Part shown: one piece after another, positions 25,241 to 57,559 of the stretch
Layout of the letters: each line of letters begins with the position of its first letter
Numbering within the stretch: the first letter of the stretch is position 1
DNA from: Stromatinia cepivora
Taxonomy: Eukaryota > Ascomycota > Leotiomycetes > Helotiales > Sclerotiniaceae
Assembly: GCA_014898415.1 (NCBI GenBank)
Contig: RCTD01000012.1
Location: 1,550,001-1,614,000, forward strand
Reading direction: 5' to 3'
Length of the DNA stretch: 64,000 nt
The notes under the pieces: model-generated
Databases searched by the model: none
What the model was told of the DNA's origin: nothing
The model's input: the letters and a program-made list of their open reading frames with translations, nothing else
Program-made: the position numbers and the translations under genes

Positions 25241-25344
25241 AACTTTGCTTATCTATTCTACCAAATCTATCAAGGATTTGATCTTTCACCCCAAAAAACT
25301 AACCCTAAACTATACAATAATATACAAAACCCAAACTTATAATT

Positions 25345-31958: not shown

Positions 31959-32300
31959 TTAAATATCAATATAATATAATTTTGTAATAATCCATTCATT
32001 CTCATCAATTATCAATCTAATCGCTTGTTGATTATTATAAAAGATCATTACAAACTCTTTTATTACTAAATCGATCTTTTTTAAAAAATATAGGATTACT
32101 ATAATTTCTTTTGATATATATTCGACTCCGAGAAACTTTATTTCGGTAATCGAGGTAATCATAATATCTTGTTTAAACATTTTCTATATAATTAAACTAT
32201 CGAAAAGGGATATAATATACCCTTAAAATAATCGATAAATATCTAAATCATCTATAAAAGAAATATCTAAGAAAACAAAAAATTGTAGTATTTGATTATT
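31959..32300 (-). pseudogene. Copia RNase H remnant
   Basis: On the minus strand the frame reads FIDDLDIYR, then GYIISLF, then KQDIMITSITEIKFLGVEY, then NNQQAIRLI and a final YIDI. This is the order of blocks in Ty1/copia RNase H (SDADWA, S-T-x-G-Y, S-x-x-E-A-E-Y, DNQ-A-I, K-H-I-D). Stops and E-to-K or D-to-N type changes interrupt it. An open stretch of 73 codons remains at 31,959-32,180. Confidence 0.78.
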
Positions 32301-35300
32301 ATTATATTGGATTATAAGATACCTTGTATTCCATAGATATTGTAAACAATGATCAACAACTTTTATATAATCACTTAATAGATTGATTAAATAATAATTT
32401 AATTATAAAACAACAAATAATATATTTGCTTTTATAATAATTACAATATATAATACTGAACCCACTTTCTCTTAATATATTTTTATAATATATATAGGAA
32501 TTTGACCCTGATTTTTCCGAAATACTATTATCAAAAGCAATATATTTATTATCCTATTTATTGCTTTGAATTTCTTAATAATCTTCTTAATGTATATATT
32601 ATGAATTAACCACAATTTTTTTTTGAATCGATTACAGAATATATATATACCTAGAAATCATTTAGTATTTTCTAGATCTTATAATTCATATACAGTTTTG
32701 ATTCCTTTAATGATCTTTATAACAATTGATTCATTTTTTTTATAATAAATAACCTGAATATTATTTATAAAGAAAAGAATTATAACAATATACTTTGGAT
32801 TAATATATAAATACAATTCCTTTTTGCATTATACTAATTCTAGTTTCTCGAATATCCGAATGAAATTCTTAAATCATATAATTAAGGAATCTTATAGATT
32901 ATATAAAGCTTAATCAATTATAATATTTTTATTTAGGATTTTATATTTATCAAATAAATAATATATAATTAGAATACTAAAAGAATTATATAAAATATTA
33001 ATAAAGGTATTGATTATATTATATTGCTTTGTTTCGAAATCGTATTTAATAATAATTATTATTATAATTCAAAATGATCAATTTACTAATATAATAATAT
33101 AAATAGTTTTAATAGTATTTTTAATTTAAAGATCTCTTTATATTATTAAATATAAACAATAACAAATAATTAAATCTTAATCATTATATTTATATATAAA
33201 TATCTATTAAAGGGAGATCGATTTTGTAAATTCCGATCCAGAATCGATTTTATATTAAATTTTCCTAACCTTAAAATTATTAACTTTAAGATCACAATCC
33301 TATTTGAATTAATATTCTATTTGATGATTTTCTAATAGATAATAAAAACAAAGTAACTTTGAAATTGCAAATATATAAATTCGAGGAAATAGTATTACTT
33401 ATAATCTATTGATTATAGATCAAATAGAAAGCAATAATGGTTTTGCTTCAATTTCAATGATAATTATATTATGAATTATTACAAATTGAGAATATTCCTT
33501 TATATCGTTTATTCTTTATTAATCAAATCAAAATATAAAATAAAAGTTATTTAAGCAAAATAATCCCATTGAATCTATTCTTTGAAATATAATAATTCTT
33601 ATATAAAATCCAACATTAAAATTACTTTTTTGATGGTATTACTGTATATATAATTGCCTTTATATACATACTAATTACTTTGAAATATAAAAACTAAATA
33701 ACTCCCAAAAAAGAAATAACTTCGAATAATAATCATATAATTGAAATTCAAATGGATTAATCTGAATCTTGGATATTTCAATCTTTATAATGCAAACTCT
33801 TTTAAACATCTATTCAAGATCATAAATCTACAAATCCTTTATAAATCGATCAAATGAATATATAAGATATAACAATCTTTATAATAATTGAATTTCCTTT
33901 ACAGAATATTCTAATTGATTATTCCAATATATATACTTTCTTTTAAAATATTAAAATTGATCGATTGAAATAATCTCTGAATCACTTTCGTATATACCGT
34001 AAAGAACTTTAATAATACAATTAATAAACTTATATTCTATATTCCTTATATCAATATATTCAATAAAATCGGGATCTGTATTATTGTTATAAGCATTTCC
34101 TTGAATAATACTAATATTTTTATCTATAAAATATAATTGCTTTTCAATAAAAAAATCGGTTTTTTCAATTTCTTCAATAAAAGAATCGATCGATATTTAT
34201 ATATCTTTATTATATATTTTATCCTTATTATCTGAAGAATTAGATAAATTGGATAATCCTAAATCGATTTCTTTATTTCTATTATCATTCTTTAGATTTA
34301 TATTTATCCTTAAGATTAATTCGTTTGTAAATAATAAATCTGAAATATATTTGATAAATAAATTAAAGGCTTTTTGATCTATAAAAATAGATAGATAAAT
34401 AAAATCTTTATGATTATCCTTGTTTTGAATAATCGTTCTGTCCATTTCGATATAATCTTATAGATCAAGGGCTTTAACAAATTGTTTAAGTTTTTCTATA
34501 ATATAAATATCAATTATTCAATTAATAAAATCCATATAATAAATAAATTCTTTATTGAATGTTACATTTCGAATAATAATAATTCTATTGAATTTGAATA
34601 TTCATATACAATAGATCAGTATACCTGGAATATAACCCATTAAATACCCAATATATACTCAAGGATTAATTTTATATTATTTTCTATTAATTCCAATTTC
34701 TTTATTCTTATTCAAAAAATAAACTCAGTATTTATACTTGTAAATTTCATTTCAATTGAAATAAAGATCATTAGATATTTTCTTTACAAATAAAGGATTA
34801 TCTTTACGAAAATAATTATGGAATTATATATCAAACACTTTATTAAACAATTTAAAGGATTTGGTTTTCAAAGGATTTATATTATATAGATAAGTAATAA
34901 TTTATATTACTTCTATTTACAATTTATCTGGTAAATCTATTATAATCTATATTTTTATTTATTTTATAATTATTTCTTATCCTATACATTCTAATTCTTT
35001 ATTGGATTTATATATATGAAATAGAGATAGCTCGAATTCGATACCTTCTTGTTTAATCCATTTCTCAAATAATATTATTTTTATAATTCCAATAATAAAT
35101 ATATCATTATCCTATTTGATTATTATAATCGCTAGATTATATTTATGATGAATTTAGATTACAAAACTTTAAATGATTACAAATACTTCATTATATGTTT
35201 TGTAATAGATTGGATATAAAAAGATTTTATTATAATATATTTCTTTGATTAATAGAAACTATAATACATTATTATACTCTTTATCGAAATCAAAAAGATT

Positions 35301-37548
35301 CCATTGGATTTTATAAAAAAACTGAAATAATTGATGATCATTTGAAGCGTAAGAAATGATTTGCTTTATATAAATACAAATGTAATCAATATAATTGGAA
35401 TAAATAATACCTTTTATTTTGATATTTTGTATTATAAATATTAAATATTCAAAAACTTTCTTCTTCAAATATTTAAAGTGTTTATATTATATTTCATTTG
35501 TATTTTTTTTAAAAAGAAATGGATTATAAGAATAATAGAATGTTTTGTTTATTTTTTTGTTTATTATTAGATATATTATAAAAGGATTACTTATAGAAAT
35601 AAATAAAAGAATACTTAAATAAATAGAAAATGATTTGTATTTTAAAAATATAAGATTTTCAATATAAATATATTAAACAATTATTATATTATTTGTATAA
35701 TCTTTTTTACGAAAAGTATAATTATATTCTGAGAATTATAAATTGGTTTTCTTTAATCGAGTTTTCGAAATGATATTAATATGAAAACTAAAGATGAATA
35801 TTATATTGTTTAAAATTAAATCATTATTAAAGTAATTTTCTCTCTTGATAATCCCTTTGATAATACAAATCCTATATTTTAAGATTTAGAAACTGGAAAT
35901 ATCTATTTCTATAAAATCACTAAGATCGGATAATCGATATCGATAATCATTTAATAAAGATATATCATTTATAATATATATAGTATTATAATTATTGAAC
36001 AAAATATTATTAAATAAATAATATACTCTTACTATTATAAAATATATTTCTGATTAATTATATCAAGTATTCAAAATAACAATATTAATTAAAGGTTTTA
36101 AAAGATCAATAGAACTTTTCATTCATTTCCTTTTGATCCAATTAAAATGAAACTGTTTTTATAAATATGATTTTGTTTGATCCTTAATTACTTGTAACTC
36201 GTTTTCGCTAAATACCCTTTTAAATAATAAATTGATTCTTTTAATGAATATTAACTTTATAACTTTGTAATTATAAATAATATAATTATAACCAATTCCA
36301 TTATTCTATTCAAATTCAATTCTGCAAAGATATTTCCAAATCTTTTTGATCCCCTAATTATTTTTAAAATTAATACTCTTTTTATTCTTTTTAAACTTTT
36401 TATTATTTTAAAAAAAAATAAATATAGAATATATTCCTCTTTTAATTTTTAAAGAAATAAAATCTAGAAAAATTAATCCTTCAAAAACGTTTCTGAATTG
36501 TTTGAATAAAAGATTAGATAATCCGAATTAATTGTTTATTTCGATCTGTATAATTATAATATTTGTTTAAATTGAAAGTATTCTAATATTAATAACTTAT
36601 AAAAAAATATTAATAACAATTTCATCCTATACTTCAATAATCTTATATACAAAAATTTTAATATAAATTATAATCCAATCCCTATACCATTTAATAAGAT
36701 TGATTCTATTAAACAAAGTTTACATTAAAACAAACCGATATTCTTATAATATTGCAAACTTGATAATAATTATTATAAATACAAACTTCTTTTTGAATAT
36801 ATTAATAATTGTTTTGAATAAAAGAATTATAATACTCTGATTAAGAATAAATAATTTTATAAAATATATTTGATTAATTAACGATTCGATCTATTCATAA
36901 ATATCACAAAAAGTTTTGTAATTCTATATATATTCTTATTATCGATATCGATACTTCAATTAGAAAAAGACAAATTCGAAAAAGATTTCTTAGAAAATAA
37001 TTGAAAATGAAATAATAGATCTATTAAGAATGAATCCTGATATATTACTATTAGAATCTTTCATCTTTATATCTCTATTAATATTTTCTCTGGATTGGAT
37101 TATTACAAGATATTCCGAGAATTCCTTTTAATATTGAATTTGTTTCTTTTAATCATATTTAACTTAGAAATCAATAATAGAAAATAAAACAAATAATTTG
37201 ATTGAAAATTAATCAATCTAAATACAAATAAATTTATTTATTAAATCGAAACTTAAAATAGATATCGTTAATATAGAAACAAACGAGTTGTTCTCTGGAT
37301 TGATTGAATCCTAGATTCCTTAAACTTGATACTTATTTTTCAAGTATAGATATTATTTCAATTATTGAATATAGATTATAAAAAGAAGATTGTTTTGATC
37401 CTTTATTATATTAAATAAAAATAACTAAATTGATATAAATATTAAATTATAAATAAAATAGGAATAATATTTTAAGAATAATCTTTTGAATATTTAGTAA
37501 TCATTGGATAGGAAGTTATATAGATTTAAGAGTTATCAAGCTTATAAT

Positions 37549-37857
37549 TATCACAGGATAATATGATTATAAAGCATTTTCAGGGATTAGGGAATAAATG
37601 ATATATATGATTAATAAAGTAAAAGAATTAAATGATTTGCCCTTGATTATATGAATCAAGAATTATATATATAAAACAAATGAATAGTTATTTAGCCGAT
37701 ATACACCTTAATTAGACTAGATCTTTGTTTATTAGGATATCAGGATCATCTTATCAATTGGTAGATTGGTAAGGGTTAGTAGATTCTTCATTCCGATTGG
37801 AAAGTATACGCTTTGATCCTTCATAAGATACAGGGGATCACAGGGCTTTCCGTGACA
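37549..37857 (-). repeat. Copia LTR (309 bp), right copy, lightly RIPped
   Basis: Same length as the other two copies. Start TATCACAGG, end CCGTGACA; the right half is almost identical to the solo LTR at 48,735, the left half more A/T-converted. Confidence 0.88.
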
Positions 37858-40503
37858 GTTTATCTATAAGATAATTATTATAGAAATTATTCTGATATTC
37901 TTCAATAATGATAATAATAAAAAAGAATTTAATACTGAGAAATAATTAGAAATAATTGTTACACCAAATATCCCTTATATACACCGACTTTTCCATTCCC
38001 AAATGATTATATCAATTTCAGAATTTACAATCACGAATATTGATAAATAGGAAAAAAAAGATTATCATTTTGATCTTTCGAAAAAAGCCCTTTTTCATCT
38101 ATTTATTCTGAATAGATTCATATCTTATTATTATATAGTTGATTATAATATAAAGTTTGTTTCAAACAATAACGATTCAATCTTCAACAATTTTAAAACA
38201 ATCTTAAATTCTTTATAGGAGCTGAAAAGTTATTTTTATAATTTAGATTATCAATTTGAAAAAGAATAATACTTTTTGATAAATAACAAATATATTATCA
38301 ATTAAATAGAATAAAAAGTTATTACATCATTAAAAGAACAAATCATTGTAGATACTCTATATATATACCATTTATATACCCTAACAAAACTCTTCAATTT
38401 AAAATCGAAGTATATTTCAATTAAAGAACTACAAAACAGATTAATTATTATTATCAGAAATCGAAAATATATTAACAAAATGAAATTAATAAGGATATTT
38501 TACCTTTGATTCTATTTATATTAATTCTAAATTCTAAAATAATTAAAGCAAATCTTTAGTTTTAATCGATTTAATTTAATAAAAAACTTCTATTCCCCTA
38601 ATTCTAATAAAGTCCTCAAAAATAACCTTTTTCTATTAGAATTATCAAATAAAGAATTCTTTGAAAATCAATTTATTCTATATATTCCTTTATTTTAATA
38701 TATCTTCGAATAAAAAAATGGATTCGATTTATAAAATATTTGTAAAGATGTTTTTATTATTTATAAATAACATTTCTATAGAATTTTTAAAAAAAAATCC
38801 GTTTTTGAATTACTATTTTTCGATTATTCAATTTCTTTTGAGATATAATCCTATATTATAATATACTGCTTTTTATATTTAAAAGAATAAGGAATTCTAT
38901 TTTATACTAATACCTTTATTTATATTATATTTTTTTAATTGTAATAAGAAATTTAACTTTTGTTATTCTTTCTTTAATCTTTTCTATTTAATTTTTAAAA
39001 GCAAATAAAAAGAAGTTTTAAAAAGAATGATTATTATAATCGATTTTTTTAAATTAAAGGAATCGATTAAAAGCTTTTATAAAGAACACTAAATTCTTGT
39101 TCTTTATAAACTAAATAATAATAATAATTTAATTTGGAAATTCCTAAAGAAATATTCTTTTATTTGTTAATTATAATATAATTTTAATTGAACAATAAAA
39201 AGGAAAGCTTTCCAAAAGATCGAACAAAAGAATCAATTTCGATAGAAAACCTTGATTAGATTTGAATCCTGAACAATTGTAATTCGATTAAATATTATTT
39301 TGTAATATACTGATTCTTTTAGATTCTATAGATCGATTTTGATATCGATTTTCTATTCAATTATAATCTTAAACGAAAAGAATATAAAGGATAATAATTT
39401 TTATAAAAACTTTTGGAGATTTCTTCAAAATCAAATTGTTCTTTTTGAATTAAACGAATTTAATAAAGAAAACCTTTATATTCTTCGATCTTTTTTTTTT
39501 AATATTAATTTTGTTTTATGAGACTATCTTTCTATAACTTTTTTAGAATATTTATTTTGGGATTCTAATGTTGTTAAAAAAATAACAAATAAATTATTTG
39601 AAATTAATAATAATGAATTCGAATTTTGATATAAACAATAATATAATTTTGTAATAATAGATCTAGTTATCCAATTTGAAGTATTTCAAGATAAAGAAAA
39701 GCAATAGAGAGATCGATCATTATTTATAGATTATAATATACTTTTATAATAATAAAAAGCCTTTTATAATAAGAATTTCAAAGATAATGAATTCTTTAAT
39801 AAAGAGAATATTAGTAATTAAAAGATTATGAATCTAATTGAAAGAAAATCCTTTATTAGGAAGTTTTAATTTATATCAAAAAAGTTAATTAGAAAAAGAA
39901 AAGAAATTGTAGGACAAGAATCGATTCAAAACCAATTTACAATATTATCCAAATTTGTTAAGATAGTTCAATCATCAAAATCCCCAATTAAATCTTTTGG
40001 AATACAAAATACCACTTCAATTTTTAATATAGATTATAAATCAAATAAAGAATAAATGAATCGCTCTTCAATAAAGAAACTTTTTGTAAAATCTAATAAT
40101 AAAAAAAAGAATTATTTCTTCAATATTGAACAAAAACTTATAACACCAAAAATCTCTATTCATTATTCAAATCGTATTCAAAAATCATTAAAAAATCCTA
40201 TTACAAATATAAAATCCATTACAAAATATTCAATTAAATATTTAAGAAAAATTGAAGATAGAAAAAATAACAAAGATACTTTTCAAAAACTTGAAATTTT
40301 TATCGAATTTAGTAGAAAGACAATAGAAATAGATTTGGATTAATAAGAATCTAAAATATATTGTTTTTTTTAAAATAATCTTAAAAATTATTTATTATTC
40401 TAATTAGTTTTCCTTAATCTAATTATCCTTTGATCTTTTTGGTTTTTACTTTTTGTAATTATTCTGAAATCAAATAGAATATATATTCTGAAGAAAAAAA
40501 AGA

Positions 40504-40795
40504 TATAAGAAAATTGGGATATTAAAGTTTAATATATAAATAATTTGTAATTATATAATTATATAACTCTTCGTAATTAAATATAAAAAAAGATTTTGTT
40601 CCTCTTTTTTTAATAGAAATTAATCATCTTTTCATTAATCTTTTTATATTTTATTTATATACAACCCAAACCATTATCTAAACCTACTAGTTTTATTATT
40701 TGAAGTTTCTACAATATAATCTGATCAATTCCAATTCCCATTTCCCCTCACAGCGTGCTATCGGGACGCACGTATCTCGACCTATCTCTTTCACA
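40504..40795 (+). repeat. Right LTR of the outer gypsy element
   Basis: 292 bp partner of 17175-17467. Here the left half is converted (TATAAGAAAA...) and the last ~130 bases keep normal composition, including CACAGCGTGCTATCGGGACG. Confidence 0.85.
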
Positions 40796-43156
40796 ATATT
40801 ACCCTTTATTATTCAATTATATATTTATTATATATTTAATGTAACTTTTTAATTTATTAATCTTCATATACTATTAAATATTCTTTATCAATTTAATTTT
40901 TCTTTTAAATTTAATTTTAAGTGTTTTAAATTTCTTTTTCAATTAAAAAGTCAATATATTTCAATCAATTATGTAAATCTTCTTCAAATAAAGTTTCGCA
41001 CCTAAATCAAACTTAAAACTGCAATTTCACATCAACCTCATCTTTCCACCGCCAAATGCAATTCGACAAATTCTTCATAAAGACTCTTCGACTGTATTGC
41101 CATTTCCACCGTGGTGGTTCTGCACCGAGTGGGTAAATTGTTCATTATTTCACGCGACAAGTGCTTTTCTCTAAGCTGCCACATACCGATAGCTTTCCAA
41201 CCTCAATTTTTAGATATAGTTGTCGGTCATACGGTGGTGGGTGACCTGTAGCATTCCAATCTCGAAACTCATTCAAAACATTTCTCGACGCCTTTGGGGT
41301 TAAGACAGTTGAAGTAAACGGCTCTACGCGTCCGTACTGGCGGTGCCAGATGAACTACTAATGCAGGATGGTGATCGTGCGGTTGCCTTGTTGGAAAAAG
41401 CCTTTATGCCCTCTGATGAATCATATATTTACTCAAGTGAATTTTTCATGTACGTTGCAGCTTTCCATTACCAATATTATCACAATACATACATCTATGC
41501 GTTCTCTTTCTCATTATCAGGCTCCGTCCCACAACCATACCTGGTTCTTCATGCGCCGGGACCCAACTGTCGTGGTACATCTAGCCACTTCAATTTGATA
41601 CTGGTTTCGAATTAGATGAAAAAAAAATCTAAAGTATATCCTTTTGAAAAATCATTCAGACTGAGACATGCCCATATATCGATAGATCTCGATTGATGTG
41701 TCTCTGAGAATTGGTTCTCATAGAATCTGCAGCCAAATCCCACTCCGTATATCTTGAGTATAAGTCCTTCCTCGGCAGTAGTAAGCTCTGTAAATACCGC
41801 GATTAGATGTGGCGGGCTTCTTTAGGTATCTGACGACGTTATCAGGGCATTTTTACTACAGTGATTTGTATTTAATAAGAAGACTTTGAAGGACGCCGAG
41901 TACTTTATATTCTTGTATTTAGCAAATGATTTTAAAACTAAATCCTAATTTATTAAATAAGAGGGAAATAATAGAAATAATACCCCTATCCCTTTCACAT
42001 TTTTCAAAAAGATTAATAAAGATTTATAATTCTAGTTTAAAATATTCTATATTATTATAGTTCGAAAATATTCTTATTCGATTATAACATTTTCTATTAA
42101 TAATTTTTTTCTTTTGATTAATAATACTATTATTAATTCTTTATTATTAATAAAAATATATAAAACCTAGTTTTCTTTTTGTTTATTTTTGAAATAAAAT
42201 ATACAGAGTATATTGCATATTTTTTATATTTATATTAAGATGATTTTTGATGAATTATATATATTGAGGTTTTTATTCTAAATATATTTTTAATCTATTG
42301 AAAAGTTATTTTTCTTCCGATTTAATTTTTTAGAATAATTTATATAAACTTTTTCAATTGATATTATAACTCTTGAACAAGATTTTCTTTTTCTAATCTT
42401 TCAGATCGAATTCGATTTAAATATATTTTATATTATAAATTGAAGTTGAATAAATCCATCTTTAGAATTTTTTATATTATTTGATTTGAATAATTTTAAT
42501 ATAATAAAGAGTATATTAATTATGAAGAAATTCATGATTATTATTTCCATCCCCAAAAGGAACTTTCATTTTGAGTTTGAAAAGAAAAAAATTGAAGATT
42601 TGAATAGTGAGGGAATGTTTAAAATAGAGTTTTGGGGGTAAAATGAGTTCATTAGTAAGGATCATATTGATCAACTAGATTATTAATATTTGAAGGAAAA
42701 TTCCTGTTTATTTAAATAAAATCAATATTGATTTGATCTTCAAATTTGATCAATATTAATATGAATCAATTCTTTTTATATTTCTTTCTTGGTTATTTCA
42801 AAACTTTAGAATCTAAAATCAAAATAAAGTTCAAAAGAAAGATCTCTGATCATCCTGACCAATCAGAGCCTATCATTTAAGGTATATTGCACAGATCATT
42901 ATGGCGGCCATTGTTGACATTCTAGGGGATATATCTATCTTACTTATACTTGTACGCTTTTTTGTATTCAACTTTTGAATAGTATTAACAATACAATTTT
43001 TAATATTAGACTTTTTATTGCTCACGATATTCTATCATCACCGAGGTGATACCGACAATGAAGGGGAGTAATGATATCAAAAATTTATTCAAAGCATAAA
43101 AGGCTATAGCTTCAAACACATCAAGTTACAATATATATACTTTAACCGCCCGCTCT
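40796..43156. other. Gene-poor island and AT-rich tract upstream of kinesin 3' end
   Basis: About 41.0-41.9 kb has near-normal composition and holds a possible gene remnant (separate entry). About 41.9-42.85 kb is AT-rich without recognisable element ends. About 42.85-43.15 kb is the 3' flank of the kinesin gene. Nothing else is seen. Confidence 0.5.
41056..41615 (+). pseudogene. Possible gene remnant or small spliced gene, unidentified
   Basis: An ATG at 41056 opens 26 codons (MQFDKFFIKTLRLYCHFHRG...) that run into a donor-like GGGTAAAT. A second open stretch from about 41,331 encodes VLAVPDELLMQDGDRAVALL and then SYIYSSEFFM, ending at a donor-like GTACGT (about 41,451). A possible acceptor (TTATCAG) lies at about 41,520. 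Composition is normal and the codons look protein-like, but I could not derive one consistent spliced frame and do not recognise the product. It may be a real small gene or a remnant stranded between the transposon blocks. Confidence 0.3.
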
Positions 43157-45421
43157 TCATTTACCTCGTCCCCTATCCCGAGTGTTGCCCCGAGGGTCAT
43201 GACTACCCCTAGTAGCTAGAGTACCTCGAGTAGAGGCAGCACCCCTGGCCGCCCCTCTCGTACTACCACCAGCAGCAGGTGTCGACGGCATCATTTTTGA
43301 TTCCTCCACCCCACCTCCCGTAGCCGCAAACTCCGTCACAACATTCTTCGCCGGCTTTTTCTGCGTAACCTTGCTCACCAAACCACCAAAATCCATCGTA
43401 TGAATGGATTCCTCCAGCTCACCAAGGCTAGCTGCTTGGATAAAGAGCACTTTACCACCAGTAAAACCGTCTTGAAGCAGTCTGGTGAGCTGTGTGTCTC
43501 GGAATGGGATGCGTGCTGCGTTGTTACCCATGGCAACTAGCACGCTTTTCAATGCTGAGAGCTCGGAATTGATAGCTTGCGTTTCTGTCTGCCGACCAGT
43601 GACATTTTTCAAAGATTCGGAACCCGCAAGATCAACAAATGTAATACCGGAGCGTGCCGTTGTGATGGCACCAGATGGTTCTGTCCTTGATGCTTTTACC
43701 TGGAAGGACAAGAACATGTGAGAACGTGACGAAGTGTCATTCTTCTCCGTTTGACCCGATGCACGATTCTTATTCACCTCCTTAATCATTGCTTGAATGG
43801 ATTCAAGATTGTCAAGAACAGCCGTTTGTACTTGCAGTAGTTGTTCACGTACGGGCCACATACCGCCGCACTCGGTTGAGACTTTCTGTGGTTCTCGTAC
43901 AGACTTGAAGAGATCGTATACCTTTTGTTCATATACTTCAATACAACGGCCCTTGACGCTGTAGTCTGTTCCGTAGGATTTGTCGAGTTGGGTGAAAATT
44001 TTTTCTAAAGCCATGTCGAGCATCGCACTCATGGTGTATGTTTTTCCAGAACCGGTCTGTCCATATGCAAGGACAGTGATGTCGTAGCCCTGAAGCGCAG
44101 CCTCTAAGATTTCACTTAGGTCCTGGAAAACGGAGGCATTGTTAGCTTCAGGGGCAAAGACACGATCGAAATTGAAGTCGCGAGTGTTGCCAAATCTGTC
44201 GATGACTTCTACTTTATCACCACCATGAATTGAGATGGGTTGCTTAATGAGAGTGTCCTGTGGAGGTCGAATACGTAGCCAAGACCGGAAATTCCCTTTA
44301 CTTTCAATAAGTTCGAGCTTGAGTTTCTTGACAAGTATCTCCATTTCTTCAAGTTGAATAACAGAAGACTCCTTCTCTGACTTTAGCTTAGCCTCCATGA
44401 AAATTTTTTCGATGGCCAGATCATCACGATCATCTATGAGTTTTGCTATCTCATTCCCGTGCTGTTGAGCTATCTGTATTGCTTTAAGGCTTTCTTGTTT
44501 GAGTTGAACTTTCGCTTCATGCAGCTCTTTTTCAAGTGCTGAGCTTTTCGACTTCAGATTTGTGATCTCATCTTTGTCAGCTGCGCTATCCTTGAGCCTG
44601 ATACTTTGGATCTTGGCCGCATCAAGGGATGAACTCATAGGAGGCGCTGCTGCTCTAGCGGCCTCGGATTCCCGTAGTTGACGATTGCTTTCTTTCAGCT
44701 CTTTTTGAAGCTGTTCAACCATCTCATCCCTGCTTATCAGTTCCACAGCTTTTTTATTACTGTGCGCCTGCAAGGCATCGAACTTTGCTTGATTTACTTT
44801 AAGTTCGCTCTGCAATCCGACTAGTAGTAGATTTTGGGTCATCGATCTGGCTTTAGAATCGCTGGCCTTGACGCTTGTCTCGTCGACCATCTTTGTCAGG
44901 GCTTTATTATCCGCGGCGTGTTTATCGCTTGCTTCACCTAAAGTTCTGAGAATTTCGTCTTGATTACTTAATTTGAACGACAGCGCTTCAATTGCTGCCA
45001 TAACATCTTGTGGGACTTCCACCGGCTTAGGCGGCGGCTGTCTTCTTAGCCTCTGGTACAATGGAGTAATTGGAGACCGGCCTTGTGGGACTGCCGACGG
45101 CGTGGCTCTCTTCTTGATGCTCTCCAAATCATTTGTATTGTTTTGCTGCTCTGTTTGAGCTAACATCAACGATAGCCTCATCTCTTCTCCACTTCGCTTG
45201 CTCGCAGCATCTTCTCCATCTGGCTCGACCTCGGGATCGTGCTCTCCAGCTTCAGACTTTGTTTTGGACATCACTTCTATGCCTTGCGAAATCGGTCCTG
45301 CTTCTGTCACGTCTTGCTCTTGCTCAGTAGACTTAATGGACTTGCCACTTTTGGCACTTTGGCCGGTTTCGCGGCGGCGAATGTCATCAAATCGTTGTCG
45401 AAGATTTTTCTTTTCAGACAT
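43157..45421 (-). CDS. Kinesin-14 family motor protein (C-terminal motor)
   Basis: Microtubule motor of the minus-end-directed kinesin-14 type by domain order. Single exon, 754 residues. Residues 1-140 are charged and low complexity; about 140-375 are predicted coiled coil; the neck-motor boundary ESKGNFRSWLRIRPP is at 373-387, where kinesin-14s have a GN motif. Motor motifs are intact: P-loop GQTGSGKT 454-461, switch I NDTSSRSH 561-568, switch II DLAGSE 597-602, and LTRLLQDGFTGGK after that. The motor is divergent in places (WLRIRPP for the usual CRVRP, MDFGG near the end). After the motor (to about 690) is an unusual Arg/Gly-rich tail with several RG/RGS repeats ending RDRGRGK. No introns and no RIP damage, although RIPped transposons lie within a few kb on both sides. 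It could be a mitotic or meiotic spindle motor; the nearest paralogue cannot be decided here. Confidence 0.88.
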   Translation of the reverse strand: MSEKKNLRQRFDDIRRRETGQSAKSGKSIKSTEQEQDVTEAGPISQGIEVMSKTKSEAGEHDPEVEPDGEDAASKRSGEEMRLSLMLAQTEQQNNTNDLESIKKRATPSAVPQGRSPITPLYQRLRRQPPPKPVEVPQDVMAAIEALSFKLSNQDEILRTLGEASDKHAADNKALTKMVDETSVKASDSKARSMTQNLLLVGLQSELKVNQAKFDALQAHSNKKAVELISRDEMVEQLQKELKESNRQLRESEAARAAAPPMSSSLDAAKIQSIRLKDSAADKDEITNLKSKSSALEKELHEAKVQLKQESLKAIQIAQQHGNEIAKLIDDRDDLAIEKIFMEAKLKSEKESSVIQLEEMEILVKKLKLELIESKGNFRSWLRIRPPQDTLIKQPISIHGGDKVEVIDRFGNTRDFNFDRVFAPEANNASVFQDLSEILEAALQGYDITVLAYGQTGSGKTYTMSAMLDMALEKIFTQLDKSYGTDYSVKGRCIEVYEQKVYDLFKSVREPQKVSTECGGMWPVREQLLQVQTAVLDNLESIQAMIKEVNKNRASGQTEKNDTSSRSHMFLSFQVKASRTEPSGAITTARSGITFVDLAGSESLKNVTGRQTETQAINSELSALKSVLVAMGNNAARIPFRDTQLTRLLQDGFTGGKVLFIQAASLGELEESIHTMDFGGLVSKVTQKKPAKNVVTEFAATGGGVEESKMMPSTPAAGGSTRGAARGAASTRGTLATRGSHDPRGNTRDRGRGK

Positions 45422-46426
45422 ATTGCAATTCGATGAGGTAGTAATGTGCGTCTATACTTGGATGACTCCAGGAAGTGGAGAACTTGGGATTGAAAGTCCA
45501 CATACTAATAAATGCGTCTGGCTTCTTTGTCTTTGCTTTCGAGGACTTGTTGCCATATATGGAAATATGAGTGTCTCTTTGTTTTTGAGCAATCAACAAA
45601 GGCGGACCTGGAGTCGGCGAAGCCAGTATTCCACGGTAAAATAGTTTGAGAATTCAAATTCTGGGCAGTTTTGTGCTTTGTCTTTTGTGAACACGCTCGA
45701 GAGAGAGAAGAACTCCTGAAAGAACCAAAGGGAAATGTTATGGGAACGTGATGAATGTAGTCTTTTAGAACAAACTTCTCGACTAAATATAGGGATAATT
45801 TAAATAGGAAAAAGGCAATTTTTAAGGTCGTCAACTTCAACGCGGTATTTCTATCTTTGCCAAAGCATTAGGATATATGAACCTCTCGAGACCTTCAAAA
45901 GTTTCAACGTATGATATCAAATTTCGCAACATACACAAAAGCAGACAACCCTATAATGACAAATAGAAAACGACATCGATATGGAAATTATCTGTGATGA
46001 TGATGAAGAAAACGATCCTACAGCTGAAGAAGACATCAATGTAGATGATGATGTATTTGATTTAAAATTTCAATGCAGTAGAAGATTCTCAATTTCGAAG
46101 GGATCAAGTGGATGACGAATGGTCATTTAGAAGATAATGATTGATCCCCTGGATCATCTAATTCAGATAGTACGGCTCTTGTCGATTTCTAATTAAAATA
46201 TTTAAGTCTTTATTAAGAATAAAAATTTATTTATGAAATTTCTCATTTTTAATAATATTCCTTTATTTTAAATTTGGAAATGTTGTAGATAAAATCAAAA
46301 TCAAAACTATTTGTTAAAATCAACTCGATAGTATTGAAAATATAAAGTAAGTCAACTAACTACTCTACTTTTGGACTACTTTTTCACATCGAAAATCACG
46401 ATAATCAATATTTTTAACTTTCTGAT
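45422..46426. other. Kinesin promoter region and right edge of the island
   Basis: Normal composition to about 46.15 kb, then AT-rich. The first few hundred bases must include the kinesin promoter and leader; a 61-codon minus-strand frame lies immediately upstream in the leader (45,414-45,599) and could be a fortuitous upstream ORF. Confidence 0.45.
45981..46115 (+). CDS. Small acidic ORF, unidentified
   Basis: ATG at 45981 to TGA at 46113-46115, 44 residues, beginning MEIICDDDEENDPTAEEDIN, then VDDDVFDLKF, then a short basic end. The acidic run is not random-looking, but no homologue is recognised and the stop may truncate an older longer frame at the edge of RIPped DNA. It could be a gene fragment. 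Confidence 0.25.
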   Translation: MEIICDDDEENDPTAEEDINVDDDVFDLKFQCSRRFSISKGSSG

Positions 46427-46545
46427 TGTCACGGGTTCACCACCTGTTCCTAGCTAGTATAGATACTTCAAATATTTATTATTCGTTATATAATTGAAGG
46501 TGCTTTTGTATTTTTTTCTTTTTTATATAGAATATTACATTATTA
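46427..46545. repeat. LTR-like repeat, copy 1
   Basis: Starts TGTCACGGGTTCACCACCTG and shares blocks with the sequence at 47,298 (GTTCCTAGCTAGT-like start, TATATAATTG centre, TATAGAATAT end), but the two differ in the middle. The right end is uncertain and no target duplication was found. Confidence 0.4.
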
Positions 46546-47297
46546 ATTTAGTATTTATATAATGTTATGATAATATATTCTATTTTTTAAATGATTTTAT
46601 TATTTTAAAAAATTAAATTTTTGGGGTTTTTATAATAAATTATTGATAATAAACTTTTTTTTGGATATCTTTGATTAATAATATATTGATCAATATTACG
46701 ATATATAAGATATTTTTGATTTGAATCTTTATTTTTATTTTCGATTTTGTTTTATTTGTTGATATAGGAATTGATATTTGTAATATTTTTGATATGAATT
46801 TTAAGATGTATTTTTGATTTTTAATTTTTGATTTTATATTTAATTAAATTGATTTTTAAAATGATAGATATTTTATTTATTTTTATTATATTTTTTGGAG
46901 GTCATTATTGTGAGTAATATTAGAGTTTATATTTAAAAGGTTAGGGTTATTAATTATTATTTATATATAAATTATATATATTAGAAGATATAAAATTCGG
47001 AAATTCTGTTTTTATAATTTATTTATTTGATAATAAAATTATTCAAAATTATAATGTTTTTAATTATATAGTTTATTTGTTTAATATTGTTGAGTAAATT
47101 CTGAAACTTATTTATAATAATTGTAAGATTATTTATATAATAGAAGAAAATTAAATGGTTTTTAAAGAAAATATATATAAATTTGTTTATTTAAAATATT
47201 GTATTATGTAATTAATTTTTTTGATATCTGTAATGATTTAATTTGTAGTAATTCAGATTAATTTTATTTAGTTTTAATATCAATTTTGATAAATTTT

Positions 47298-47412
47298 TAT
47301 CACGGGTTCACAACTCATTCCTACCTAGTGTCTTTGGATGCCTTAGGCATCCATCCTCTATATAATTGGTGCTCCTTTTAGCATTTTCTTTCCTTCTTTA
47401 TAGAATATCATT
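47298..47412. repeat. LTR-like repeat, copy 2, with perfect hairpin
   Basis: Starts TATCACGGGTTCACAACTC, related to copy 1 at 46,427. It contains the perfect palindrome GGATGCC-TTA-GGCATCC at 47336-47352, absent from copy 1. It keeps normal composition while its flanks are AT-converted. Confidence 0.42.
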
Positions 47413-48734
47413 ATATGATTAAAAGTTATTTTATTCTCCAAAAGATTCTGTTATTAAAGTGGGGAAATAATTCGGTTTTGTTTTAAGAAAATAATATTAA
47501 AGAAATCTAAAAACTTTGATTAATAATATATTGATAAATAATTGTTATTGTTATGAAATAATAAATAACTCTCATTAATCACTTCATAATATAAAGACCT
47601 ATATATATATAGAATATACTCATTCCGAATAATAAGAATAATATAATCAATATGATCAATTAGACTAATTAAGTCTAGTACCCCACTTTCCGGCCACCTC
47701 TAATTCCGGCCACTTCAAAAAACCACTTCATTTTCAGTAATCTATATTATTAAACCTTTAATAATTCAATAATTATTCAATTAATTGATCTGAAATTTGA
47801 ATATATTATTATTTACAAAATATTAAATCTATATATTGAAGATAATATTGTTATGGCTTTTGGTGTGATCGCAAATAGTATGTTTATATATTAGGTTAGT
47901 TCAGAATATAGTGTTTCTTGTATTATATTTCAAGATTGAATTTATAATAGGTTTTTTTATAAAAAAGAGTATTAAGATATATAAAAGATAGTTTTGATTT
48001 AAGAAAGGAAATTGGTAGATTGAATATTAATATAGGAATCATTGAATACTAATTCTATATATCGATAAATAAAGGAAATGAATGAAAATTATTTCGAAAT
48101 GAAAAAAGATGATTTATTATTTAGAAAAAGATAGATATACAATTTTTTGTTTTGGAATTCTGAAATTAAAATCAAAAGGTAATATAGGATTGATTCTGTT
48201 TGTATTTCGGATGTAATTGATGAAATTATTAATAAGTAATTTGAAAAATTATATTTGTTTGATATTAAATATATTAAATCCGAAAACAAATGGAATATAA
48301 ATGAAACAAGCATTATGAAAGGCTAAGGCCTTAATAGATTAATAATAAAGAGTTCCCAGTAATATTTTATTTAAAAAAAACAATCTGGTTTAAGAATTTG
48401 GATCTTTTTTATCGAATATATTTCAGTAATCAATAAAACCCTTTTTCCCTTTGTTATTTATAAGAATTTAAGAATATAATAACAATAATTCCTTATAGAT
48501 TTCATTTTATATAAAGATTGGAACTTTATTGTAATTGAAAATGGATAGATAATCAATAAAACAGCTTTTAAATGATTGAAAAAGGTTTTTATACTTCAAA
48601 TAGTTCTTTTTCAACTAAAGAAAGCTAGATTATTTATTTTGAATGATTATAGAAATTATAAAACCATTGAATTTATAATAGAATACTTCAAATATAATAT
48701 ATATCTTTTATTTTTATTGTTATATATATTATAT

Positions 48735-49043
48735 TATCACGGGATAGTATGATTACAGAGCACTTTCAGGGATCGGGGAATAGGTGGTACACGTGATTGG
48801 TAGAGTAAAAGAATTGAATGACTTGCCCTTGATTATATGAATCAAGAGCTGTATATATAGAACAAATGAGTGGTTATCTAGCCGATATGCACCTTAATTA
48901 GGCTAGATCTTTGTTTATTAGTATATCAGGATCACCTTATCAATTGGTAGATTGGTAAGGGCTAGAAGATCCTTCATTCCGATTGGAAAGCATACGCTTT
49001 GATCCTTCATAAGATACAGGGGATCACAGGGCTTTCCGTGACA
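48735..49043. repeat. Solo LTR (309 bp) of the copia family at 29.6-37.9 kb
   Basis: Same length and collinear with both LTRs of the copia element at 29,577-37,857. Starts TATCACGGG and ends CCGTGACA, flanked by TATAT at 48730-48734 and 49044-49048. The least RIPped of the three copies, it gives the best picture of the original LTR. It lies inside the pogo-like transposon. Confidence 0.9.
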
Positions 49044-49254
49044 TATATATATTACAATCATTGAATTTATCGATATTTTTGCTTTTCAAAAACGAATATA
49101 GATATTATCTTAATAAATTAAATTCTTTATTAGATTCTATACTAATTGAGAAGTATAATTTTCTTGAATGTTATTAAAAAGCAAAAATAAAGGATTTAAC
49201 AATTTATAATATCAAAAAAAAGGATAGAAAGCTTCAGATTTATAACTTCAAAAT

Positions 49255-49740
49255 TATATTAAACCTTTTTTCAATAGATTATTGTTCAAGAATAATAACA
49301 AAAAGATTGTTATTCAAAATTTTCTTTCAAATAATAATCTTATATTTCAATGGAATAAAAAGATATCTTTTTTTGAATGGAAAACTCTTCAAAAAACAAA
49401 TGATATTCGAAAATATATTTATATAATGATTCAAAAAAAAGAGATCGATCTTTCAATTTGTTAATTATTTTTTCGAAAGATTTCGAAAAGATATAATATT
49501 AAGGATTATATATTTATATTAACAAAATATCGAATAAAATAATTAGAATATAAAATAGAGTATATTGTATCTAAAAAAAGAAGGATGACTAAGACTAATC
49601 TGAATTCGAAGTTTGTAGGGATTAAAGTTATTCGGAAGGTACAAATTGAAATTAGGGATTGTGAAATTGATAAAAATGATTCTAATGATGATTATAAAAC
49701 AAATTCTAAAGTGATTATATTGAAGTAAAATAATTATTGA
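49255..49740 (+). pseudogene. C-terminal remnant of pogo/Fot1-like transposase
   Basis: The plus strand reads FEWKTLQKTNDIRKYI, then LFFRKISKRY, then a charged coiled stretch ending near LNSKFVGIKVIRKVQIEIRD. This fits the tail of fungal Fot1/Tan1-type DDE transposases, where a TPxxxxDLRKQ-like motif is followed by a helical charged region. Stops interrupt it. The catalytic DDD part, upstream at about 47.9-48.7 kb, is too degraded to trace. Confidence 0.55.
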
Positions 49741-50544
49741 GTTATTAAAGTTTAAAATTTATATAATGATTTTTTTTGAAGTGGCCGGAATTAGGGATGG
49801 CCGGAAAGTGGGGTACTAGACTTAGATCAATTTGATCAATTTGATCAATTCAATCTAATTAACCAAATCAATTAAATTGATCAAATTAATCTAATCAATC
49901 TATATATATATATCATATTCATTCTGAATAACAAAATCAATACAATAAACAAAATCGATTAAATTATTTTGACCAATTAAATCGATTTGGTCAATTTGAT
50001 CAATTAATCAAATTGACTAAATTAATCTAATCAATCAATTCAATTTAATCGATCAATATATGAATACGAATTCGAATTCATAAATATTCGAATAAAGAAA
50101 TCTAAATTAGTCAAATATCAGAATTATTCGAAATAAAGAACCTTTATTATATTAATCAAGATAATTAGAATGATGAATCTTTATTCAAATTGACAAATAA
50201 GAATAAAGCATTGATATATGAAAGAATTCGGAAAAGGTATATAAGAAAATTATATTTTCAATATTAAAGGTTAAGAATCTGTACCAAAAAAAATATTATA
50301 TATAATATTATTATATCATTTAACTTTTACTATTATTATTATTATAACTTGATATTTGCTTATTCCATTAATAGTCTCTGAATTATTATTTCCCAATTAT
50401 AAGATTTATCATCTTTAAATATATAATCTCTAATAGATTATAAAGCTCAGAAAGCTTTAAAACAATTATAATCACGAAAAAATTAATTATACAATCAAAA
50501 CTCCTTATTATTTAAGATTAATACAAATTATAATCATTATTATA

Positions 50545-50814
50545 TGTCACGAATCGTGAACCACAGGAGGTTAATCACATGATACCTCTTATCTCCCTTA
50601 TCAATTGGTGAGCTGATCGTTTATATATATACATTACAATTTATATAATTTAATATAATAAAATAATGATTTTAATAATATATATATATATAGCCTTATA
50701 ATTTACAAATAGATATTTAATTGTTTTTTACAAATTATAATTCTTTAATTGTAGATTCTAAGGAATATAATTGATCTTGTTTATTCAATTTTATTATAGT
50801 TTTTGTATATTATA
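50545..50814 (+). repeat. Left LTR of the second gypsy element
   Basis: Left ~90 bp has preserved composition, including the palindrome-like CACGAATCGTGA; the rest is AT-converted. Pairs with 57232-57513. Confidence 0.8.
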
Positions 50815-53672
50815 TTATCTATAATTCATTATAAATATTTGGTTATCTAATAATCTTCTAAATAATACTTTATTTTAATAATATCTTCTTGAATGCATCT
50901 TTATAAATGTTTTATTCAAAAAAGAAAATCTATTTTGATTTAATCAATAAAGATATAAATCCTTTTAGAAATATATTATTACTTTTATAATACAACGAAT
51001 TTTATTTTCTATATATTCCGAAATTTTGAAAACCTATTTAGAAAAACCTTTTTTTTTTTTTTTTTTTCAATAATCTTTCGAAGAGAATATAGATATAAAC
51101 TTTGATAATTTTATTATTAAAAGAAAGAAAATTGATAAAAAAAAGATTTCAGTATATAAAATCAATATTTTTGATAATTTAATTACTCTTTTTGATTTAT
51201 TATTATAATTATAAGATCTTTATATTATAATTATAAATTTGAAAAAAAAGAATCAATAATTGAAAATTATAATAATAACGAATTCTGCAATAATATAATC
51301 TTTTTTTGAATCCCAAATAATATTAGTATAAATATTCAAATTAATAATAATATTTGGAATTCTTTTTAATTTTTTAATTGAGGATTAAGAATCTGTATTT
51401 AAACAAATCAGAAGATCTCAAGATCAAAGGAAGAAAATTTCGATCAAATGATTTGATTATTTGAAACTCTTTAATAATTCTCTTTCTTTTTCAAAAAATA
51501 ATAATCTATATAACAATCAGAGTTCTTTTTATTTAAGAAATTAATCTAAATGATCAAAATTATATTCCTATATTAATTATAATTTGTATTAGAATATATA
51601 TATATATTAAAATCTATAAATTTTATTATTAAATTTAATAATAATATTAAATCTAAAATTAGTTTATAGTAATTATTGATTATAAAACGATTCGAATTAT
51701 ATATTATATTATTTAAGAATAAAATATAATATTATATATATATAATTAATTAAATAGAATCAAAAGTATAAATATATTATTATACTTTTTATATATGAAT
51801 ATCCCAATTTATTATATTCGAATGAATTAAATAATTTATAATGATTTATTAAAATCTAATTGAAATCAATTATATTTGTTTTTAATATAAAATATAGATT
51901 ATATTTAATATAATTCGATATAATAATTTCTTAAAATGATATAGGAAATTCAGATTATTTATTATCCAAATAAAGATCATTAATAATAAAATTCTATTCA
52001 AGAATCTCGAATAAAAGATTTCTGATTTTTTTTGGTAAATAATAATAATATCTATTAAAGATTATAAAATTATAAAAAAACTTATAAATATATTTATTAA
52101 AATAAATCAAAATGAAATTTCATTATAAAAACAAAATTAATATTATATTAAATAAAATACCTTTACAATTATTTATAAATTAATAATTATTATAAATCCT
52201 TTATAATCTTTTCGAAATTTTAACAATTTCAATTTTAGAATCTTTATATTCCCGAAACTATTTTCATTTTAAAATATCCTTTTAGAATATACAGATTCCA
52301 TTATATTTAATAATTATTCAAATTTCAAATATTCATTATCTTCTTTTTTTCCTGAAATAATATATATATTAATATTTTGTATTAATAATTTCAATAAAAT
52401 CGAAACAATAGAAAAAAAAGTAGAAGAATCCAAAGAATATCAGAATATTGAAAAGGATTTCAATTCAAAAATTATAATTAAAATTATATAAGATATTCAT
52501 TAAAAAAAAAGAAATATTTAAAATTAAATATTTAAATTTCATTTTTATTCTAAATATTATATAGAATATAAGATTTCTTAATTTAATAAAACTTATAGAA
52601 GAAAAAGTATTCATCCTTTTTTATAATCTTTAGAAGAATAATTATATTTATCAATTAAAAACATTTATTAATTTTAAAATAAATGAATTTGTTTTTATTA
52701 ATATTATATTTTTTATTTATTTATTTCTTATATTTAAATCAAGAATGATATTATTTAAAATTTCGATTGAAATCAAAGAATATAATAATATACAAAATTA
52801 TATTATTATCTATTTTATATTCTTTAATTTAACGATCAAAAATTATAAACAATCCTTTATCCTTTTCTTTATTATTGAATTAAAGAATTATAATATCATT
52901 TTAAATAAATTCTGATTATCAAAGATCCAAACAAAATTTAATTATTTCAATCGATATTTCGAATAATTTAAAAAAAACTTTATATCATCTTTTATTCGAA
53001 AAATCTCTTTATTATTTAATCATCCTTTTGGAAATGAAAAATCGATTAATTAATTCAATAAAATATTGATCAACGAAATAATTAATTCAAAGAATATTGA
53101 AATCAAAAAGATTTACAATTGAATAAATCAATTATAATCAATAATATATAACCAAAATCTTCAAATATAAATATAATATAGATTCTTACTGAAAAAAAAG
53201 AAATCATGATTTCCTTCAAATTCAATCTATTTCTTTTTCGATCAATTATATCATTATTGTAGATCTACAAATACCTCTCTAATATATTATCTGAAATTCT
53301 CGATCTATATATATTCAAATCCAATAAATTCCAATTGAAATATAAAAGAAACAAATAAACTGAATTCTTTATCTTACTTTAAAAAAACTTGATAATATAA
53401 TAGATTTTCAATGAAACAAAGAATATACAAAAAAGAGAATATTAATTGTTTTAGCTAAATTCAAGAATACAAAAGTTCGAAAGAAATTCAATCAAGTATT
53501 GATCGAAATCGATTCAGAATTTGAAATATTATTTAAATATCAATAATATTATTAACTCTTTTTCAAATATAAATCAAATATCTTATCTTTTAATTAACTT
53601 TATAATTATAAAATTATATTGGAAAATAAAAAAGAAAAAGCCTTATAATATAATCCATTTTATAAGATATTC

Positions 53673-54180
53673 TTGAAACAATTAGAAATCATTAAAGAAT
53701 ATATTATAAATAATTTCAATAAAGGTTTTATTAAATTTAATCAAGTTCTTTATATTATATTTATTTTATTTATTAAAAAATTCAATAATAATTTGGGATT
53801 TTATATAAACTTCAGATTATTGAATTCCTTAATATATAAGAATCGATATCCCTTCCCTTTAATTAACAAAATATTTTCTTGATTTTTCGATACCAAAATT
53901 TATATCAAATTCAATATTCATCAAGTTTTCTATTATATAAAAATAAATTCTATTTTGAGAAAAAATATACTATCTTTCAAATCTAATACAGATGATACAA
54001 ATACAAAATCATATTATTCAAATTAATAAATAATTTTATAATTTATTAACATTATATAAATAATATTCTATTCAATTATTTAAATATCTTTTATATAATA
54101 TATCTCGATAATATTTTGATTTATTTTGAAAACAAAAAAGAATATCAAATTTATATTAAACTAATCTCTGGATAATTAAA
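53673..54180 (+). pseudogene. Gypsy reverse transcriptase remnant
   Basis: An open stretch of 69 codons contains NFNKGFIKFNQ, then FYINFRLLNSL and KNRYPFPLINKIF, matching the start of gypsy RT (fingers, with R-x-LN and NRYPLP-like block). Further on, 54101-54112 reads YLDN, the catalytic YLDD box with its last Asp changed to Asn by a G-to-A transition. RNase H-like blocks follow to about 54.7 kb, with many stops. Confidence 0.75.
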
Positions 54181-57100: not shown

Positions 57101-57231
57101 TAAATTAATAAAAATGATTAATTTAATGATTTAAGATTTATAGATCTTTACAAAATCTAATTTTTAATGAAATAGCAATAGAATAAAGGAATAAAATATT
57201 CGAAAATAAATTTTTTCGAAAAAAAGGATAA

Positions 57232-57513: not shown

Positions 57514-57559
57514 GGTTTAATATTAAATATATTTATCGATAATATAATTATTATAAATT

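What the first reader, a model, noticed from the sequence alone, without database searches (positions are those of the whole stretch)
43157..45421. Intact intronless kinesin-14 stranded between RIPped transposon blocks
A complete 754-residue kinesin-14 with all nucleotide-binding motifs, but a divergent motor and an added Arg/Gly-rich tail after the motor, sits in a 3-kb island with RIPped DNA on both sides. Lack of introns would fit a retrocopy or a fast-evolving accessory gene. Kinesin-14 proteins drive neocentromere transmission in maize (Kindr), so a fungal kinesin-14 in transposon-rich, possibly accessory DNA deserves a check for selfish inheritance. That last step is speculation.
Basis: partly seen in the sequence, partly recalled or inferred. 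Interest (0 to 1): 0.75.

Follow-up and report, generated by a model that had tools for sequence, protein, structure and literature searches.

The report
Divergent second kinesin-14 of Sclerotinia-like fungi
The window holds an intact gene for an unusual second copy of a microtubule motor that related fungi also carry; its motor half looks preserved by selection and no sign of a selfish element was found, but its heavily altered motor surface and added tail make it worth testing.

Summary
Window 43157-45421, MINUS strand (no strand was given), encodes an uninterrupted 754-residue protein with a kinesin motor (Pfam E 5.8e-62), in a ~3.3 kb single-copy island between AT-rich repeats. It is not a recent retrocopy. 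Two searches return a sharply bounded family of 16 clusters: the window, three unnamed, and 12 named fungi (two Sclerotinia, six Botrytis, Ciborinia, two Hymenoscyphus, Microthyrium). The motor is 81-98% identical within Sclerotiniaceae. The genome has a separate ordinary KlpA. The best tree puts the family inside fungal kinesin-14s on a very long stem. All 16 keep the ATP-site motifs, but 48 of 110 otherwise near-invariant kinesin positions have changed, many at expected microtubule contacts. A basic RG tail follows the motor in 15 of 16. The left flank's repeat is on 21 contigs and the contig carries core-type genes, so 'accessory' and 'Kindr-like driver' lack support; drive, expression and strain polymorphism were not testable. 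Best reading: an old, specialised, patchily recorded second kinesin-14, probably a microtubule cross-linker. A link to split-nucleus chromosome distribution in Sclerotiniaceae is speculation.

The parts
43157..45421 (-). complete 754-codon ORF of the divergent kinesin-14 (reads from 45421 down to 43157)
45002..45421 (-). N-terminal region, residues 1-140; poorly conserved; pI 6.0 here, 4.6-10.0 across the family (9.0 or more in 9 of 16)
44324..45001 (-). residues 141-366, presumed coiled-coil stalk (only a rough heptad proxy; no coiled-coil predictor was run)
43352..44323 (-). motor region, residues 367-690, beginning with the kinesin-14 neck-type sequence SKGNFRSWLRIRP
44039..44062 (-). P-loop GQTGSGKT (residues 454-461), identical in 16 of 16 family members
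43718..43741 (-). switch I NDTSSRSH (residues 561-568); N..SSRSH in 16 of 16
43616..43633 (-). switch II DLAGSE (residues 597-602) in 16 of 16
43529..43615 (-). residues 603-631, expected loop 11/helix 4 of the microtubule interface (structural names recalled): 7 of 15 near-invariant kinesin positions changed
43454..43513 (-). residues 637-656, expected loop 12/helix 5 of the microtubule interface (names recalled): 8 of 15 near-invariant positions changed (SKLT-type K reads Q at 644; QLTRL in 16 of 16)
43157..43351 (-). C-terminal RG-rich basic tail, residues 691-754 plus stop; RG dipeptides in 15 of 16 members (none in the last 45 residues of Microthyrium)
42900..46200 (.). single-copy island with the gene and about 0.8 kb of unique upstream DNA; one match in the whole assembly (itself)
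17500..40900 (.). AT-rich block (19% GC); a 3-kb sample (30000-33000) has 39 further long copies at 81-84% identity; matches lie on 21 contigs
46400..64000 (.). AT-rich block (16% GC) running on to the contig end; a 4-kb sample (46400-50400) has 153 matches genome-wide
7997..9256 (-). neighbouring gene used as linkage marker; the cluster named for its S. trifoliorum orthologue is reported from a contig of the same length (879,621 bp) as the S. trifoliorum kinesin

Best explanation
An old, lineage-restricted second kinesin-14 (a paralogue of KlpA/Kar3) kept by selection in Sclerotiniaceae and a few other fungi, which in this species sits in an island between dispersed repeats. Shown: intact frame, ATP-site motifs, conserved motor, a separate KlpA in the same genome, placement inside fungal kinesin-14s. 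Inferred: it is a dimeric, ATP-driven motor with a kinesin-14 neck (hence probably minus-end-directed) and an altered, probably weaker motor-microtubule contact; the RG-rich tail after the motor is an added tether to microtubules or nucleic acid. Such a motor would act as a slow cross-linker or brake on spindle or nuclear-positioning microtubules, in a role beside KlpA that some relatives seem to lack.
For: Family of 16 clusters with a sharp score drop (389 to 163 bits; 780 to 201 bits). Motor identity to the window: 98% (S. nivalis), 93% (S. trifoliorum), 81-84% (Botrytis and the Botrytis-like P0009), 83% (Ciborinia), 67-68% (Hymenoscyphus), 59% (Microthyrium); in each of the 15 rows the motor exceeds coil and tail, as expected of a working motor under purifying selection. 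KlpA is separate, on C27. Tree: family 100/100; p-AU 0.007 against a place with the non-14 kinesins; inside the fungal kinesin-14s (98/93). Nucleotide-motif positions kept 25 of 29 against 15 of 30 in the L11-a4 and L12-a5 stretches (Fisher p 0.005), while nine control kinesins changed 0-4 positions in either stretch. RG tail in 15 of 16. In KlpA an N-terminal non-motor tail binds microtubules and the motor-neck core is inherently minus-end-directed (PMC5216134, abstract and passages), a precedent for tail tethers in this class.
Against: The changes are not concentrated at the microtubule interface: the rest of the motor is as altered (15 kept and 15 changed against 22 and 29, p 0.65), so 'altered interface' may be general drift outside the ATP site. 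The controls are favoured, since their own close kin sit in the reference set and the family's do not. The tail argument is weak on charge alone: the last 45 residues of five ascomycete KlpAs are basic too (pI 9.9-11.1, against 11.6-12.0 in 15 of 16 here), and 9 of 16 family members keep a basic N terminus (pI 9.0 or more; KlpAs 11.0-11.9). The stem is very long (4.35 changes per site), so the sister group is unsure. Inside the family, Ciborinia (Sclerotiniaceae) falls outside a group that holds Hymenoscyphus (Helotiaceae) at 92/93, unstarred, so strict species order is not shown. dN/dS could not be computed (orthologue DNA not held).
Confidence: 0.55

Rival explanations
1. A no-longer-motile kinesin-14: it still binds nucleotide but has lost productive stepping, and works as a microtubule- or nucleic-acid-binding scaffold (compare the non-motor Kar3 partners Vik1 and Cik1).
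For: 48 of 110 positions that are at least 80% conserved in 36 other kinesins are changed, including K/R to S/A at 619, K to Q at 644 and a two-residue loss at GGNSKT; basic RG tail.
Against: P-loop, switch I and switch II motifs are intact in 16 of 16; a pure scaffold would be expected to lose them. Vik1 and Cik1 are called non-motor proteins in PMC8950801 (passages).
Confidence: 0.2
2. A selfish segregation driver (Kindr/Trkin-like) that gives its chromosome an advantage by pulling repeats polewards.
For: Kinesin-14 class; location in repeat-rich DNA within about 60 kb of a contig end; patchy recorded presence across species.
Against: Single copy, where Kindr is eight or nine tandem genes acting on 180-bp knob repeats (PMC8437031, passages). 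No tandem array in the window beyond 238 bp of AAATAT (TRF). The left-flank repeat is spread over 21 contigs. Orthologues in several genera with a strongly conserved motor.
Confidence: 0.03
3. A relatively recent processed copy (retrocopy) of KlpA in this lineage, now drifting.
For: No introns, while own KlpA lies in at least three separate ORFs, as expected with introns.
Against: Only 37% identical to own KlpA; grouping with it alone disfavoured (p-AU 0.024); long orthologues in 12 named species. An ancient retroposition before the family arose is not excluded.
Confidence: 0.04
4. Horizontal acquisition: the family arose in one fungal lineage and moved between distant fungi, which would explain one Dothideomycete (Microthyrium) among Leotiomycetes, and Ciborinia's odd place in the tree.
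For: One Dothideomycete among 12 named species; Ciborinia outside a Sclerotinia-Botrytis-Hymenoscyphus group at 92/93, unstarred.
Against: Microthyrium is the deepest branch, as vertical descent with many losses also predicts; codon-position GC of the window gene (0.56/0.41/0.45) is like that of own KlpA (0.53/0.37/0.47).
Confidence: 0.1

Closest known systems
KlpA (Aspergillus nidulans kinesin-14) / Kar3
   Same: C-terminal kinesin-14 motor behind a presumed coiled coil; GN neck-motor junction (KGNF in 13 of 16 members); inside the fungal kinesin-14 clade.
   Different: Same genome has its own KlpA on C27 (37% identical); 48 of 110 conserved motor positions changed, own KlpA 1 of 96; adds an RG-rich tail after the motor; N terminus less basic than in the five ascomycete KlpAs compared.
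Schizosaccharomyces pombe Pkl1 (second kinesin-14 beside Klp2)
   Same: A second kinesin-14 in a fungus (PMC8950801, passages); falls in the same unstarred group as the family and yeast Kar3 (93/92).
   Different: Pkl1 keeps nearly all conserved motor positions (103 kept, 4 changed); the grouping may be long-branch attraction; no RG repeats in its last 45 residues.
Kindr / Trkin (maize Ab10 kinesin-14 drivers)
   Same: Kinesin-14 class; repeat-rich neighbourhood.
   Different: Single-copy here, shared by several genera, no tandem gene array and no long satellite in the window (Kindr from passages).
KLP-7 (Botrytis cinerea kinesin)
   Same: Another kinesin described as restricted to Pezizomycotina.
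   Different: 496 aa, N-terminal motor, truncated UNC-104-like (PMC5587557, passages); not this family.

Membership tests
kinesin-14 | kinesin motor domain placed C-terminally behind a long N-terminal region | tested here: met
   motor at residues 367-690 of 754
kinesin-14 | GN at the neck-motor junction | tested here: met
   KGNF in 13 of 16 members including the window's; KGSF or KGGF in 3; GN junction described in PMC8950801 (passages)
kinesin-14 | phylogenetic placement inside kinesin-14 | tested here: met
   42 kinesin-14 rows with the family among them against five non-14 rows at 100/98; p-AU 0.007 against placement with the non-14 rows
kinesin-14 | intact ATP-binding motifs | tested here: met
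   16 of 16 for P-loop, switch I and switch II
kinesin-14 | minus-end-directed motility | not testable with these tools
   needs purified protein
KlpA/Kar3 orthologue | the genome's canonical kinesin-14, one-to-one with KlpA | tested here: not met
   separate KlpA at C27, 54% to Lasiodiplodia KlpA; family forms its own clade
Kindr-like drive kinesin | tandem array of kinesin genes | tested here: not met
   one copy in the assembly
Kindr-like drive kinesin | linked satellite (knob-like) array | tested here: inconclusive
   none in the window beyond 238 bp of AAATAT, none of size in the last 7.1 kb of the contig; 30 kb between and everything beyond the contig end were not scanned
Kindr-like drive kinesin | biased transmission | not testable with these tools
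   needs crosses
processed retrocopy | intronless | tested here: met
   single open frame
processed retrocopy | close similarity to a parent gene | tested here: not met
   next best in genome 37%
accessory-chromosome gene | contig made of lineage-specific or dispensable DNA | tested here: not met
   same contig carries SNARE-, Rtt106-like- and PNK3P-domain genes and a gene with hits across Leotiomycetes; only this window and stretches at the contig ends were read

The most novel reading that the evidence does not exclude
The family is a dedicated motor for the unusual nuclear biology of Sclerotiniaceae: a weak-gripping, RG-tethered kinesin-14 that links nuclei or sorts chromosomes between them, contributing to the reported distribution of a haploid chromosome set over two or more nuclei in S. 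sclerotiorum and B. cinerea (commentary PMC12387345, parts 1 and 2 of 3 read, which names tethers crosslinked by motors such as kinesin as one plausible mechanism). Not excluded here, but neither species was named among the listed family hits, and Hymenoscyphus and Microthyrium carry the gene too.
Probability: 0.04. Interest if true: 0.9.

Novelty: new variant of a known kind. Interest (0 to 1): 0.45.

Why it matters
Kinesin motors are strongly conserved; a family that keeps the ATP site but changes 48 of 110 otherwise near-invariant motor positions is a natural experiment on what a kinesin motor needs. If it works on spindle or nuclear microtubules it is also a concrete candidate gene for the odd nuclear behaviour reported in Sclerotiniaceae. 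In the listings of seven literature searches (open-licence PMC papers only) I saw no description of this second kinesin-14; subscription papers, including the 2003 fungal kinesin inventory (Schoch et al., known only as cited), were not seen.

Tried and rejected
Recent retrocopy: rejected on identity and tree. Accessory-chromosome or driver reading: no support. KLP-7 identity: rejected, different architecture. Further copies of the gene in the same genome: none found by DNA or protein search. Transposon identity of the flanks: no Pfam match over cut-off in seven short ORFs; a copia/gypsy look of some (31959-32180, 53673-53882, 58065-58313) is by eye only. Centromere or telomere: no telomere arrays in the first 8 kb or last 7.1 kb of the contig; of 216 telomere-pattern matches genome-wide only the first places were shown, on C2, C4, C5, C14 and C21; a centromere is neither shown nor excluded. 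First tree was flagged for long branches; for I left out P0006-P0008, own_C1, own_C3, own_C19, own_C43 and Entamoeba, and changed the other reference rows. still holds long branches (Daldinia 2.48); Daldinia and own_C43 were left out of the position audits, which used 13 of the 16 family rows; the motif counts used all 16. Species identity not established; closest named relative Sclerotinia nivalis (89%).

Presence in S. sclerotiorum, B. cinerea and Monilinia: not settled. The neighbour-gene search (120 of 1407 hits listed) names Monilinia fructicola, M. vaccinii-corymbosi, S. borealis, B. cinerea, B. convoluta and Rutstroemia, none of which is named among the listed kinesin-family hits; but 90% clusters can hide Botrytis species behind another name, P0004, P0009 and P0013 are unnamed, and only the candidates sharing most words were scored.

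Full report
WHAT IS THERE. Window 43157-45421 holds an uninterrupted 754-codon ORF on the minus strand (the plus strand in that frame holds many stops). Pfam finds the kinesin motor (E 5.8e-62) and Microtub_bd (E 2.8e-30). The best solved relatives are Kar3 and Ncd, both kinesin-14. The motor lies at residues 367-690 behind a presumed coiled coil, starts with a kinesin-14-type neck (SKGNFRSWLRIRP), and is followed by an RG-rich basic tail (691-754, pI 11.55).

SURROUNDINGS. The window is C12:1550001-1614000 of a 55.67-Mb assembly in 48 contigs. GC falls from about 43% to roughly 9-26% per kb at ~17 kb and stays low to the contig end, about 84 kb later, except for the gene's island (42.9-46.2 kb, 43.7% GC) and a ~1-kb islet at 41-42 kb. 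No telomere array was seen at either contig end. The island is single copy. A 3-kb sample of the left block (30000-33000) gives 44 matches (40 of 406 candidates scored): itself, 39 further copies of 1.9-3.0 kb at 81-84% identity, and four short pieces, on 21 contigs. A 4-kb sample of the right block (46400-50400) gives 153 matches (40 of 1353 candidates scored). So these flanks are dispersed repeats found across the genome. Standard RIP indices (cut-offs recalled) are not met, unlike the AT-rich regions of Botrytis fabae, up to 95 kb, where transposon remnants and RIP indices were reported (PMC10971195, passages). The left 16 kb carries genes with SNARE, Rtt106-like histone-chaperone and PNK3P domains: core-type, not accessory, content.

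FAMILY. The single-sequence search (4171 hits, 120 listed, 7979 candidates scored) and the profile search (567 hits, 120 listed, 7989 candidates scored) put the same 16 clusters above a cliff (389 to 163 bits; 780 to 201 bits): the window, Sclerotinia nivalis, S. trifoliorum, six named Botrytis, Ciborinia, two Hymenoscyphus, Microthyrium (a Dothideomycete), and three unnamed. Motor identity to the window runs from 98% to 59% and in each of 15 rows exceeds that of coil and tail. The S. trifoliorum kinesin (P0003) and the cluster named for the S. trifoliorum orthologue of the neighbouring gene at 7997-9256 (P0121, 3 members) are both reported with a longest contig of 879,621 bp, which fits conserved linkage. 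For Hymenoscyphus albidus the two reported contigs differ in length (138,366 and 469,711 bp; the second cluster has 2 members), so linkage is not shown there. Full-length members from records without a named annotation (P0004, P0009, P0013) hint that the intronless state is shared, but some such records may come from RNA.

NOT THE CANONICAL KINESIN-14. The genome shows 12 Pfam kinesin rows, two of them adjacent pieces on C19, so probably 11 loci. Canonical KlpA is on C27 (54% to Lasiodiplodia KlpA) and is the nearest relative of the window gene in the genome, at 37%. In the better tree (47 rows) the family is one clade (100/100), inside kinesin-14 (100/98 against five non-14 rows) and inside the fungal clade (98/93), on a stem of 4.35 changes per site. 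AU tests: with the non-14 kinesins, p 0.007; with own KlpA alone, p 0.024; with Pezizomycotina KlpA, p 0.235 (not rejected). A test with the fungal KlpA/Kar3 rows but without Pkl1, Saitoella and Powellomyces gave p 0.049. The nearest sister is open; the unstarred grouping with yeast Kar3 and Pkl1 (93/92) may be long-branch attraction. Within the family Ciborinia (Sclerotiniaceae) falls outside a group holding Hymenoscyphus (Helotiaceae) at 92/93, unstarred, so strict species order is not shown. Two kinesin-14s are known in S. pombe (PMC8950801, passages).

ANATOMY OF THE MOTOR. Of 110 window positions that are at least 80% conserved in 36 other kinesins (9 own-genome and 27 public rows; own_C43 and Daldinia left out), the family (13 of 16 rows) keeps 62 and changes 48 (one search counts 111 with one gap column). 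Nucleotide motifs keep 25 of 29; the expected microtubule-contact stretches L11-a4 and L12-a5 keep 15 of 30 (Fisher p 0.005). Nine control kinesins, four of them not kinesin-14, changed 0-4 positions in either stretch, though the controls have kin in the reference set and the family does not. The rest of the motor is as altered as the interface (22 kept, 29 changed, p 0.65), so the honest statement is: ATP site held, the remainder loosened. In all 16 members LAGSER-type reads LAGSES, INKSL-type reads IN[SA][EDS]L, and SKLT-type reads QLT.

TAILS. In A. nidulans KlpA an N-terminal tail binds microtubules and acts as a direction switch, while the motor-neck core is inherently minus-end-directed (PMC5216134, abstract and passages). 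The first 140 residues of five filamentous-ascomycete KlpAs have pI 11.0-11.9; in the new family 4.6-10.0, 9.0 or more in 9 of 16. The last 45 residues have pI 11.6-12.0 in 15 of 16 (9.4 in Microthyrium), but those of the five KlpAs are basic too (9.9-11.1). What is distinctive is therefore the RG-repeat sequence after the motor (RG in 15 of 16), not charge as such. That it is an added tether is inference.

READING. The evidence favours an old, specialised, patchily recorded second kinesin-14 under purifying constraint, most likely an ATP-driven microtubule cross-linker with unusual track contact. A Kindr-like driver lacks the gene array (PMC8437031, passages) and no long satellite was seen in what was scanned. 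A recent retrocopy is rejected. The boldest reading not excluded ties it to the split distribution of haploid chromosomes reported in S. sclerotiorum and B. cinerea (PMC12387345, parts 1 and 2 of 3; the original Science paper was not seen). Neither species is named among the listed family hits, so that reading keeps a low probability until presence is checked.

Noticed in passing
window 41000-42000: A second unique ~1-kb islet of ~40% GC inside the AT block; single copy, longest ORF listed 90 aa, no Pfam match in its two plus-strand ORFs. Possibly a gene remnant or non-coding element.
   Followed up: partly
window 17500-64000 and L019-L022: Very AT-rich DNA (down to 9% GC in the last partial kb of L022) that does not meet the usual CpA-type RIP indices; C loss looks only weakly context-dependent, with CpC and CpG relatively enriched.
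   Followed up: partly
window 61208-61445: Perfect ~40-copy AAATAT hexamer array.
   Followed up: no
window 62150-62306 and 62507-62663: Inverted repeat with 157-nt arms, 92% complementary, 200 nt apart: could be a small foldback element.
   Followed up: no
window 11935-11981 and 12497-12541: Two short arrays of 7-bp units (GTGAATC; CTTGTGA) in the gene-containing left part.
   Followed up: no
P0251 (Daldinia caldariorum): Another very divergent kinesin in a filamentous ascomycete (end branch 2.48), placed apart from this family.
   Followed up: no
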